DNA of 64,000 nt from Arbacia lixula (Eukaryota > Echinodermata > Echinoidea > Arbacioida > Arbaciidae): contig OZ022586.1 in the NCBI GenBank assembly GCA_963669155.1, forward strand, positions 3,524,732-3,588,731. The letters are read 5' to 3'. The notes beneath the pieces were generated by a model. That model saw only the letters and a list, made by a program, of their open reading frames with translations, was not told where the DNA came from and made no database searches. Made by a program: the position numbers and the translations under genes. Below are positions 2,271 through 45,006 of the stretch, in pieces (the first letter of the stretch is position 1; every line of letters starts with the position of its first letter).

Positions 2271-2392
2271 TGCAGTACTCCTCCTCTATGTCGCTGTCCT
2301 CCTCATCTCGTTTGTCGTTGTTGTCATAGTCACTGGAGCTGCTGTCATGTGACACATCTCCGTTGCATTGTGCTGGAATGGTTTCTGGTCCG
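2271..2392 (-). CDS. PHACTR: PHACTR acidic exon upstream of the RPEL repeats
   Basis: A 122-nt exon. The acceptor reads TGTGTGTGTAG before CGGACCAG and the donor is GCA followed by GTGAGT. It enters in phase 2 (the AG of the preceding exon plus C makes Ser) and leaves with one base. It encodes 40 full codons, starting GPETIPAQCNGD and continuing with a serine/aspartate/glutamate run (DSSSSDYDNND, then EEDSDIEEEYC). Vertebrate PHACTR proteins carry a comparable acidic, tyrosine-containing stretch just before the C-terminal RPEL repeats, so the next exon downstream, outside the window, should begin that array. A plus-strand reading through the same bases is open but has no splice support. Confidence 0.8.
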
Positions 2393-2425
2393 CTACACAC
2401 ACACAAAAAAAATTCAACATAGAAA

Positions 2426-2782
2426 TGGATTATAAAAATGCATCATCCTGAAGATTTTGGTGAAAGCCCTTGTGCTATTAAAATCCTAGTCCTTAAACTA
2501 ACCTACATTGTATAATCCCTTAATCCCTTAAACTGCATTTTAAATATGTGTAATAACTCAGAAGGCTTTTAATTGCTTGGTACTGAGAGGGTTAATCTAA
2601 AACAAAAACTGTAAAAATGAGAAATATAAATGGATTATACAACATCCTGCAGATTTTGTTGAAAGCCCTAATTCTACATCCTAGTCCTTAAACTAAGCTT
2701 TAATCCCTTAACCCTTAAACTGCATTTCAAATGTGTAATAACTCAGTAGGCTTTTCATGGCTTGGTACTGAGAGGGTTAACC
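2426..2782. repeat. Two-copy tandem duplication, about 200-bp unit
   Basis: The block from ATGGATTATA through GGTACTGAGAGGGTTAA occurs twice, intronic, just upstream of the last PHACTR exon. Confidence 0.75.
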
Positions 2783-3050
2783 TATAGTACATGAACCTCT
2801 GAATATAAACCTTGCACAACCAAGCAGCTGAGAACTTTTCGAGAAAGTGATTATCAACTCTCTATCATTGCTCTCTGCTACAGAGCAATCGCCAATGCAG
2901 AGCCCAGTGTGAATCCTTTAAAGGCTTTCACGCGTCGATTCTGTGGGGAGACGTCACTATTTACCTGCTATGCGAACTTAACGCATGTATGCGGCACGCA
3001 GCGAAATGGCTAGCCACGATCAGGGCCGAAGGTTTAGCTTCGGTAAGGAT

Positions 3051-42172: not shown

Positions 42173-42823
42173 GTTGATACCCATATGGTAGCCTGGTTTT
42201 CAAGCTGTTGGGTATTTTTTTATTTAAACTAAAATATTTAATACATGAAAATAGGTCGAGCCACAGTATACTAAGCATTCTCGATTTGTTTTGCTATCCA
42301 GCTCACCATCGAGAAAAAAGAACAAAAGTGTGAATAGTCTTAATTGTGAGCAACAGATTCTTATTTTCAAGCTTGAATTAGCCATTTTAAAAGCTTTGAA
42401 GTCAAGCTACCCATATGGCTGCTCCTTCAGTACTTTGTCTGATTCACGTTCCTCTCCTAGCAAAACCAGAAAGTACCCTTTAGCATATTTAAAAAGATGG
42501 GAAACTGCAACACTTTACCGCATAACCTTAGATCCAATCCTTATCAACTCTGATAAACCCATACCCAACAATTCCAAATTCTGATTGTAAAGGAAACAAA
42601 GGTACATACTGTGCACTAAATGGTTACTTAATCTACATGTACGTACAGGTTTGTTATAAAAGAACTGCTTAACGAATGTAGAAGTAGGTGGTGATGCTGA
42701 TAACGGACTACCAAACTGCTACAAAAAAAGGGTAATTTAGCCCCCGAAATGCAACAAAAAAAATCTCTGCACAAAATGAAATATTCTTGATGTAAACTTG
42801 ATTTTTTTTTCTTATCCATGTAG

Positions 42824-43063
42824 GATAATTTAGTGTGGCTTGACGAGAAGCCCCCACAAATAAATTTCCCCCCGGGTAGAGTGTTACAAAACTATGTTGA
42901 ACATCTGGAAGCTAGGCCAATAACAACCCTGTGTTTGCACGGACAGGAGCTGTCAAAATTGCGTGTGCGTGAATCCAGGTTTAATTTGTTTCCAAAACGC
43001 GATCATCGTGACACTTTCGTCCGGGAGTCCATGAATGCATGGCTAGAGAAGACCAGCGGGTAA
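42824..43063 (+). CDS. Terminal exon of an unrecognised nested gene
   Basis: On the plus strand, inside a PHACTR intron, a strong acceptor (GATTTTTTTTTCTTATCCATGTAG) opens a 79-codon frame ending at TAA. It starts DNLVWLDEKPPQINFPPGR, continues through EHLEARPITTLCLHGQE and ends with SRFNLFPKRDHRD, then ESMNAWLEKTSG. Composition is protein-like, GC content is higher than the surroundings and no repeat overlaps it. I do not recognise the family. The tail (arginine/aspartate/histidine-rich, no hydrophobic segment) suggests a soluble protein. No partner exon upstream on the plus strand was identified; candidates between 41.6 and 42.6 kb are unconvincing. A processed pseudogene or transposon-derived fragment cannot be excluded. 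Confidence 0.5.
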   Translation, partial: DNLVWLDEKPPQINFPPGRVLQNYVEHLEARPITTLCLHGQELSKLRVRESRFNLFPKRDHRDTFVRESMNAWLEKTSG

Positions 43064-44829
43064 TAACGAGGACGGTAATCGTCAATTAATCCCTCCACCC
43101 GCGCCAGACCCTCGTTGCCAGCCAGTAATGAGCACTCCTGTCAAAAGCCTTGGGCAGATTTCAAGGCCCAGTGCATACACGTAGGTGTGTGTGCGTGCTA
43201 CTACAACTAATATTCATACAATTGTCAATGTTTGTTTTTATATATATTAAACATTGTAATCTACTAGCATCATGTACCAGTATGAAAATGCATATTGCCA
43301 TTGAATATTTTTTTGTAATGTTGGCTAGTGTACAAATGATAACCATTCTAAATGTTTGTTTTTATCCTCATACTATTTCCATCTACCAGCATTATGTATG
43401 CGTATGATAAGCCATACATGATCATTGAATAATTTTTTAAATGTTGGCTACTAGTATGAAGTAGTCCTACATTCATCTAGCTTTTCCTTCATTTTTCTAT
43501 GGTTATCCACAGAATGTATCTGAAATTATCAATTACATGTATCGTTAATTATCTTTCTCTCTTTATTTCTTCTTTGTTTTACTCCCCAAATGTGCAATAT
43601 TAGAATAACAACAATATAACTATGAATCCTTTTTATGATGTTAAACTTGCAAAGTCACACACAATACGGCCTGCGAGCTGTAAAGTATTACTGTTTTGTA
43701 TTGTCGTTTTTATCCTAATAAAACATCAATTCAATTCAATTCATTGATTTGCCCTCTCTATTTTATCTCTCTCCGTCTTACTTTCTCTCTCTCTCTCAAT
43801 GCAATTATGTTTCCTCTCCTTTTTTTTTATCTCTCTCTCTCTCTCTCTCTCTCTCTCTCTCTCTCTATTTTCCCTTCTCTATCTCTATCTCTCTCTGTAT
43901 CAATCTTGCTTTGTATACAAAAATACAAGAATATGAAGACAAGAATATTGATTGGACTAAGAATATAGCTGGTGCTCATAACCCTCACTGGTACATGTAT
44001 GTACTTGTATGAATTACATGATACACAACTGTCTCTACACTCTTGCTGCAAGCTCAACTAACCCTCCATGTTCCATCATCAAATTATGACGAATCCTTTG
44101 CAAAACCGTGTCCCAATCTGCACATTATTACCGGAAACCAATTCTGTGGAATGATCAATGAAGCATTAAGTTTGGCAAGGCTGCCTTAAGAAGCAAACAC
44201 AATCCGCCCACCCTCCTTCGGCCCATCTCAACCCAATGCACACTGTGCAAGCCAGCCGTTAAATGGCTGGATTCCACGAAATCTCAGCCCACGCAGGCTT
44301 AAAGGGAAAGGATACATCTACGGTGGAGCAAAAAAAAAAAAAAAAACTTTCAAAATATCTAGCTTGTGCGGTGCATACCGGTAAACACATGTATGTACAC
44401 TGTATTGTGCATGGCTAATTAAAATCAAGGGTACACTAGTTCAGTCCTCCAAATGTTTAATGAATACTTGAAAATTAGGCTTCCTCAAGTTAAATCATCT
44501 AAATGACCATAATGTTGACACTCTCAAGAAGCTTACCCAAACCAAAAATAAAGACTTTATAGCTGATTCTGTACTTATTTGGCTAGCTTTATATCAAGAA
44601 AAAAGGCCAATGTACTGCCATTTGAATGTTACATGACAAGCAAATTCAGTTTAGGTGTTTCACAAACAAAATGTACATGTAATACTGTTCTGATTATTTT
44701 AATGTATTTAAAATGATAGAATGGAGTTGTATTTAGGTATAAATTATGTTTGATTTGCAAAACATTACATTTTTTAGTAAAGAACCTTAAAAGCATTAAC
44801 AGAATATACTTTTCTTCTTAATTTCTCAC
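43064..44829. other. Intron sequence; possible LINE tail and (CT)n
   Basis: AATAAAACATCAATTCAATT at 43718-43737, ending in a TTCAA pentamer repeat, resembles a LINE 3' tail or serves as poly(A) signal for the plus-strand exon. (CT)n occupies 43831-43866. Poly(A) at 44330-44345. No gene-like ORF. Confidence 0.45.
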
Positions 44830-45006
44830 CTCCAGATTTCCTCTTCTTCCTCCACTTCCACGGTCTGAAGAGTTTCGCTAGCGACATCTTCTTGGTCTTC
44901 TTGTCACTAGGTGGGGTGGTTGTCACAGTAATCTTCTCTGTGGTATTGCCATCACCATCCTTAGTGGTTTCGCTGCTGTACATTATCTGGCTGTCATCAT
45001 GGGCAG
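44830..45006 (-). CDS. PHACTR: PHACTR N-terminal exon with FRPWKWRKK motif
   Basis: A 177-nt exon, phase 1 to 1. Acceptor TTCCTTTCACCCCATACAG, donor CTGGAG followed by GTGAGA. It encodes an acidic/threonine-rich start (AHDDSQIMYSSETTKDGD, TTEKITVTTTPPSDKK) and then KKMSLAKLFRPWKWRKKRK. The LxK(I/L)F(K/R)PWKWRKKK block is diagnostic of PHACTR proteins, where it precedes the first RPEL motif and is basic enough to serve in membrane or nuclear targeting (family knowledge). Two in-frame methionines (QIMYSS and KKMSLA) could start shorter forms, but the good acceptor and open phase 1 imply an upstream first exon outside the recognised region. Confidence 0.9.

What the first reader, a model, noticed from the sequence alone, without database searches (positions are those of the whole stretch)
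2271..45006. Six-exon PHACTR homologue reconstructed with fully consistent splice phases
The FRPWKWRKK exon, two microexons, a proline/lysine-rich exon, an APPVAPKR exon and an acidic exon join in one frame, including an unusual 1-to-2 then 2-to-1 pair that would be unlikely by chance. ORF length alone would miss almost all of it.
Basis: partly seen in the sequence, partly recalled or inferred. Interest (0 to 1): 0.75.

Follow-up and report, generated by a model that had tools for sequence, protein, structure and literature searches.

The report
Echinoderm PHACTR gene, RPEL-N missing
The predicted exons are real parts of an ordinary animal gene, PHACTR, which links actin levels to a protein phosphatase; its splice pattern matches the human gene, but the first of the usual four actin-binding motifs was not found.

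Summary
All six exons have the stated borders, AG/GT ends and one shared frame. The gene continues left of the window on the - strand: six further exons encode three RPEL motifs, the PP1-binding string and an FHRP-stop end, giving a 412-aa open model. It matches solved PHACTR1 structures at 1.1e-28 and 1.8e-24. Human PHACTR1 exon lengths (PMC5994109) agree: 157/56/62/141/77 in human, 157/56/65/138/77 here. No second PHACTR locus was found in the 607-Mb assembly. Its mitochondrial code supports an echinoderm.

So this is a PHACTR orthologue and mostly ordinary. One deviation: the N-terminal RPEL, which in Phactr1 abuts the KPWKWRKKK signal, was not found in the gene or by one genome-wide search, while two control probes of similar length did find targets. 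Two small in-frame exons (42 and 45 nt) lie in its place; they are plausible but unproven without RNA. PP1 contacts and the substrate-selecting rim are conserved.

The parts
44830..45006 (-). Exon 1: TPP...LAKLFRPWKWRKKRKSG, the conserved PHACTR N-terminal membrane/nuclear-import motif; in-frame ATG at 44983-44981
   Evidence: AG/GT borders and frame; only match found in the assembly; GRIFKPWKWRKK is in the membrane-targeting sequence of phactr3 (PMC4236165)
37528..37569 (-). Exon 2, 42 nt, phase 1-1 cassette, N/D/G/K-rich; plausible, unproven
   Evidence: one match genome-wide with flanks
36554..36598 (-). Exon 3, 45 nt, phase 1-1 cassette; plausible, unproven
   Evidence: one match genome-wide with flanks
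9942..10196 (-). Exon 4, 255 nt, proline/lysine-rich linker
6655..6745 (-). Exon 5, 91 nt, APPVAPKR; phase 1 to 2, as human PHACTR1 exon 11 (322 nt)
2271..2392 (-). Exon 6, 122 nt, acidic; phase 2 to 1, as human exon 12 (248 nt). Exons 7-12 lie left of the window (see full report)

Best explanation
This is the echinoderm orthologue of vertebrate PHACTR1-4, at the only PHACTR locus found in its genome, on the - strand, with 12 coding exons found over about 50 kb. Shown: the open exon chain, three C-terminal RPEL motifs, the PP1-binding domain and the PWKWRKK motif. Inferred: it works as the vertebrate proteins do. When G-actin is plentiful it occupies the RPEL motifs and blocks PP1. When G-actin falls, PP1 docks on the RVxF-phiphi-R-W string and the C-terminal helix plus FHRP tail reshape its groove to select substrates; the PWKWRKK motif serves membrane targeting and/or nuclear import. 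Because the N-terminal RPEL next to PWKWRKK was not found, G-actin control is expected to act only through the C-terminal triple RPEL.
For: Pfam RPEL, three stretches, 2.4e-18. PHACTR1 RPEL domain 4b1z 1.1e-28 and PP1-binding domain 6zee 1.8e-24, both with the 408-residue version of the model. Open 412-aa chain ending FHRP-stop across 12 exons. Human exon lengths 157/56/62/141/77 against 157/56/65/138/77; same start phases for human exons 11-18 as for locus exons 5-12, if human exon 18 has 16 coding nt. Of 27 Phactr1 C-terminal residues that I tabulated, 23 are identical, including rim residues K550, R554, R576, H578 and R579. One locus found.
Against: No transcript data. Family papers describe four RPEL motifs; only three were found. 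RPEL1 reads RPSRKHL, with H for the motif's E, and one residue is missing between RPEL3 and the RVxF site. L519, L570, H573 and L574 are replaced by I, E, K and F. The C-terminal import signal KREIKRR corresponds to REEKKRT here. No exon upstream of 45006 was established.
Confidence: 0.93

Rival explanations
1. The gene is a normal four-RPEL PHACTR and the RPEL-N exon exists but was missed: too diverged, split across small exons, or lost from this assembly by a collapse or a deletion in the sequenced haplotype.
For: PHACTRs are described as having it. A 33-aa probe cannot see a strongly diverged or split exon. Reading through the exon 1 donor gives SGGEKLRR, faintly like the vertebrate SEKFKHTS (recalled) that leads into RPEL-N. 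One part-probe scored higher on the - strand (26, at 36692 in intron 2, a stretch with a stop inside) than on the + strand (23).
Against: No N in the window, and none in the gene left of it. The full probe found only the C-terminal RPELs above background. In introns 1-3 the best hit of each of seven probes was reached in 9 to 40 of 60 shuffles. Genome-wide the RPEL-N probe gave 0 candidates, whereas the human RPEL1 probe of equal length found exon 7 at 64% identity and an MRTF RPEL probe found a site on C4 at 71%.
Confidence: 0.3
2. Exons 2 and 3 are chance open stretches; the real transcript joins exon 1 straight to exon 4 or to other exons.
For: They are symmetric cassettes, so the frame does not need them; their acceptor scores (2.2 and 2.9) are the two lowest of the 12 scored; equally good cassettes occur in control sequence at 0.63 per 34.6 kb, and at looser thresholds at 1.79.
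Against: They are the only two candidates in introns 1-3 at the tighter threshold, with exon-like GC and purine content, lie 929 bases apart, and each with its flanks matched only itself in the genome.
Confidence: 0.35
3. A processed or decayed PHACTR copy rather than a working gene.
For: None seen.
Against: Introns present, no in-frame stop in 412 codons, no other locus found, functional residues conserved.
Confidence: 0.02

Closest known systems
Vertebrate PHACTR1 (PDB 4b1z, 6zee; exon table in PMC5994109)
   Same: Triple RPEL, RVxF-phiphi-R-W string, C-terminal helix, FHRP end; start phases of human exons 11-18; lengths of human exons 13, 3'-14 and 17; human exon 8 (165 nt; that it carries PWKWRKK rests on recalled residue numbers) also has a length divisible by three and ends in phase 1
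   Different: No RPEL-N found; exons 5 and 6 much shorter (91 and 122 against 322 and 248 nt); one residue fewer between RPEL3 and RVxF; exon 9 longer by one codon; RPEL1 has H in place of the core E
PHACTR3/scapinin (PMC4236165)
   Same: N-terminal GRIFKPWKWRKK membrane-targeting motif, here AKLFRPWKWRKK
   Different: Phactr proteins, phactr3 among them, are described there with four RPEL motifs
MRTF/MKL1 RPEL proteins
   Same: RPEL motifs; weak hits 2yje and 2yjf (0.17 and 0.42)
   Different: MRTF has no PHACTR-type PP1-binding domain (recalled); a separate MRTF-like RPEL site lies on C4

Membership tests
PHACTR | C-terminal triple RPEL | tested here: met
   Three Pfam RPEL stretches, 2.4e-18; 4b1z 1.1e-28 over residues 246-360; RPEL1 core E is H
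PHACTR | PP1-binding domain overlapping RPEL3 (RVxF-phiphi-R-W plus helix and FHRP tail) | tested here: met
   6zee 1.8e-24; FHRP exon; 23 of 27 tabulated residues identical
PHACTR | N-terminal basic/aromatic membrane/NLS motif (KPWKWRKK) | tested here: met
   FRPWKWRKKRK in exon 1, only match found in the assembly; motif function from PMC4236165
PHACTR | Fourth, N-terminal RPEL (RPEL-N) after that motif | tested here: not met
   Not found in 224 kb or in one genome-wide search, with positive controls; a diverged or split exon is not excluded. The human short PHACTR1 isoform (144 aa, start in exon 14; PMC5994109) would also lack it, so it is not in every family product
PHACTR | Conserved exon-intron structure | tested here: met
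   Lengths and phases against human PHACTR1
PHACTR | Binds G-actin and PP1 competitively | not testable with these tools
   Needs protein
Echinodermata (source organism) | Mitochondrial AAA=Asn, tRNA-Lys with CTT anticodon | tested here: met
   2 of 2 AAA codons of the COX1 stretch align with Asn of a solved COX1; tRNA-Lys ctt. That these mark echinoderms is recalled; the code table is shared with flatworms

The most novel reading that the evidence does not exclude
This echinoderm lineage has a three-RPEL PHACTR. The RPEL-N exon (81 nt, phase 1-1 in human, by exon table plus recalled residue numbers) was lost while the abutting PWKWRKK motif was kept, and two phase 1-1 mini-exons occupy its place. 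The membrane/import signal is thereby uncoupled from a neighbouring G-actin site. In addition, the one-residue deletion between RPEL3 and RVxF makes a single isoleucine serve both actin and PP1 docking.
Probability: 0.5. Interest if true: 0.45.

Novelty: new variant of a known kind. Interest (0 to 1): 0.3.

Why it matters
It shows that the PHACTR exon-phase plan and the PP1 substrate-selecting surface are shared between human and an echinoderm, and it offers a natural PHACTR in which the N-terminal membrane/import motif seems to have no neighbouring actin-binding RPEL, a useful test of what RPEL-N is for. As a gene find it is otherwise ordinary annotation.

Tried and rejected
Pfam and PDB searches with the six window exons alone gave nothing; the similarity comes from the exons left of the window. 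The RPEL family search of the genome was uninformative: 0 hits, and none in the 14 control genomes either. A viral-contig scan for relatives found none (44 pattern stretches, none confirmed). Rfam (gathering threshold) and tRNA scans of the window were empty. A first cassette-exon count crashed on N and was redone. Exon 7 was first ended one base early, which broke the frame; corrected. Exon 11 first appeared to end in a stop after KKFTR; that stop lies in a GTAAAG donor and an FHRP exon follows. AATAAA/ATTAAA sites lie about 0.97 kb and more beyond the start of exon 12; none was tied to the gene. Structure prediction was not used because the spliced protein is not a letter-for-letter translation of the DNA. 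Paper searches, listings only: PHACTR/RPEL/invertebrate/evolution 0 papers; PHACTR/sea urchin 3; CG32264 or RPEL 898, 10 listed; at least three of PHACTR/Drosophila/C. elegans/RPEL 38, 10 listed; at least two of echinoderm/PHACTR/phosphatase and actin regulator 308, 15 listed; PHACTR1/exon 9/RPEL 0. Nothing listed described an echinoderm PHACTR, but the lists were capped and the library is partial. Whether other echinoderms or invertebrates lack RPEL-N remains untested. Upstream (N-terminal) exons were not resolved.

Full report
Observation. Five junctions agree in phase (1,1,1,1,2). Four exons are multiples of three, so this agreement is less demanding than it looks, and the two small exons can be dropped without breaking the frame.

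The gene goes on. The window is C11:3524732-3588731 of a 607-Mb assembly in 590 contigs. In the 80 kb to its left a motif scan found RPEL and PP1-binding exons within 5 kb of base 1. With splice borders set there are six more exons on the - strand, in window coordinates counted leftward past base 1 (add 3524731 for C11): exon 7, -95..-251, 157 nt, RPEL1; exon 8, -882..-937, 56 nt, RPEL2; exon 9, -2143..-2207, 65 nt, basic linker; exon 10, -2892..-3029, 138 nt, RPEL3 and the PP1 string; exon 11, -4198..-4274, 77 nt, the PP1-binding helix; exon 12, coding -5284..-5299, 16 nt. The last gives FHRP and a stop, the same end as Phactr1 (F577, H578, R579, P580; PMC7599070, passages read). The whole model is 412 residues from the first full codon of exon 1, with no stop inside. 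An in-frame ATG in exon 1 (44983-44981) could start a 405-residue protein. In human PHACTR1 the intermediate B transcripts start inside exon 8 (PMC5994109, passages), which by my reckoning is the counterpart of exon 1. An upstream coding exon is not excluded and none was established.

Identity. Pfam gives RPEL three times, 2.4e-18. The 408-residue version of the model (without FHRP) matches the PHACTR1 RPEL domain at 1.1e-28 and the PHACTR1 PP1-binding domain at 1.8e-24; MRTF chains match only at 0.17 and 0.42. A genome-wide search with the 164-aa C-terminus found 5 matches, all exons of this gene. The PWKWRKK exon also gave one match only.

Independent check of the splice model. PMC5994109 Table 2 (section 16 read) lists human PHACTR1 exon lengths: 9 (81), 10 (168), 11 (322), 12 (248), 13 (157), 3'-14 (56), 15 (62), 16 (141), 17 (77). 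The locus exons 7-11 are 157, 56, 65, 138 and 77. If the human coding end in exon 18 is also 16 nt, human exon 16 starts at residue 504 in phase 0. This fits the published R507 as the RPEL3 core arginine (PMC8629116, passages) and the locus exon 10 starting LSLRPT. Start phases of human exons 11-18 are then 1,2,1,2,1,0,0,2, the same as those of locus exons 5-12. The 16-nt assumption is mine, but the three equal lengths and the equal remainders of exons 5 and 6 do not depend on it.

Organism. COX1 lies on contig C590, 15,740 bases. Under the echinoderm code it aligns with solved COX1 chains at 1.2e-252. Both of its AAA codons fall on Asn; of its three AGA codons one falls on Ser, one on Ala and one on Lys, none on Arg. 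tRNA-Lys has anticodon CTT. The tRNA order resembles that of sea urchins and sea cucumbers rather than starfish; this last point is recalled and untested.

Function. In vertebrates the PHACTR C-terminus binds G-actin through three RPELs and PP1 through an overlapping RVxF-phiphi-R-W string, so the two exclude each other; the C-terminal helix and tail reshape the PP1 groove and set substrate choice (PMC7599070, passages). Of 27 residues of that region that I tabulated, 23 are identical here, including the basic rim K550, R554, R576, H578 and R579; L519, L570, H573 and L574 differ. Over residues 519-580, 45 of 62 are identical, aligned without gap from the RVxF site. Relative to RPEL3 one residue is missing, so the isoleucine 12 residues after the RPEL3 arginine is in the position of L519 for actin and in the RVxF valine position for PP1. 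This reading of a shared residue is inference. The exon 1 motif FRPWKWRKK corresponds to GRIFKPWKWRKK, part of the membrane-targeting sequence of phactr3, reported as conserved from insects to humans (PMC4236165, passages); in Phactr1 the N-terminal import signal abuts the first RPEL (PMC3928398, passages). The C-terminal import signal KREIKRR is REEKKRT here, with one basic residue fewer.

The deviation. Papers describe four RPELs per PHACTR, one of them N-terminal. Here none was found N-terminally. An ungapped 23-aa probe over the window plus 80 kb left gave 39, 37 and 35 for the three C-terminal RPELs and 26 for the next hit. A 26-aa probe over 224 kb was less discriminating: best score 28, with RPEL2 at 27. 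Five part-probes over the gene gave, apart from the known RPELs, - strand scores no higher than the + strand ones, with one exception: 26 at 36692 in intron 2, a stretch with a stop inside, against 23. In introns 1-3, the best hit of each of seven probes was reached in 9 to 40 of 60 shuffles, 9 for that exception. A 33-aa probe over the whole assembly gave 0 candidates. Controls: a 33-aa human RPEL1 probe found exon 7 at 64% identity, 3.2e-6, as its only match; a 28-aa MRTF RPEL probe found one site on C4, 71%, 0.0066. The gene span holds no N. A strongly diverged or split RPEL-N, or a deletion in this haplotype, is not excluded. By human exon lengths and recalled residue numbers, RPEL-N is essentially human exon 9 (81 nt, phase 1-1), so its loss would not disturb the frame. 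The positions after the PWKWRKK exon hold the 42- and 45-nt exons instead. Each with its flanks matched only itself in the genome, and they are the only two 30-60-nt cassettes at their own splice-score threshold in introns 1-3, where control sequence predicts 0.63 (0.27 with GC >= 0.5); at a looser threshold 3 are seen and 1.79 predicted. That is suggestive only, since the thresholds were chosen afterwards.

Verdict. The missing N-terminal RPEL is the one point of more than routine interest, and it needs cDNA and other echinoderm genomes to settle.

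Noticed in passing
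44829-44786 (- strand, start of intron 1): Reading through the exon 1 donor gives SGGEKLRRKV, faintly like the vertebrate SEKFKHTS stretch (recalled) that leads into RPEL-N; could mark a shifted splice site after loss of RPEL-N, or be chance.
   Followed up: partly
36692 (- strand, intron 2): TSIILIRRVSS*Q, the best part-probe match to the first half of RPEL-N; it holds a stop, and 9 of 60 shuffles score as high. Probably chance.
   Followed up: partly
L001:6629-6839 and 8691-8902: Two copies of a dispersed repeat (86-89% alike) in introns 10 and 8 of the gene, about 2.06 kb apart.
   Followed up: no
L001:5062-5588: Tandem array of 58-nt units in intron 11, between the last two coding exons; another 58-nt array lies at window 61530-61715.
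   Followed up: no
window 48423-49122, 3521-4140, 23741-24000: Tandem arrays with 151-161-, 221- and 52-nt units; the 221-nt array lies in intron 5 of the gene and the 52-nt array in intron 3.
   Followed up: no
G000:C4:28853828-28853899 (L029): Probable MRTF-type RPEL exon, 71% identical to the human MRTF RPEL probe over 24 residues.
   Followed up: no
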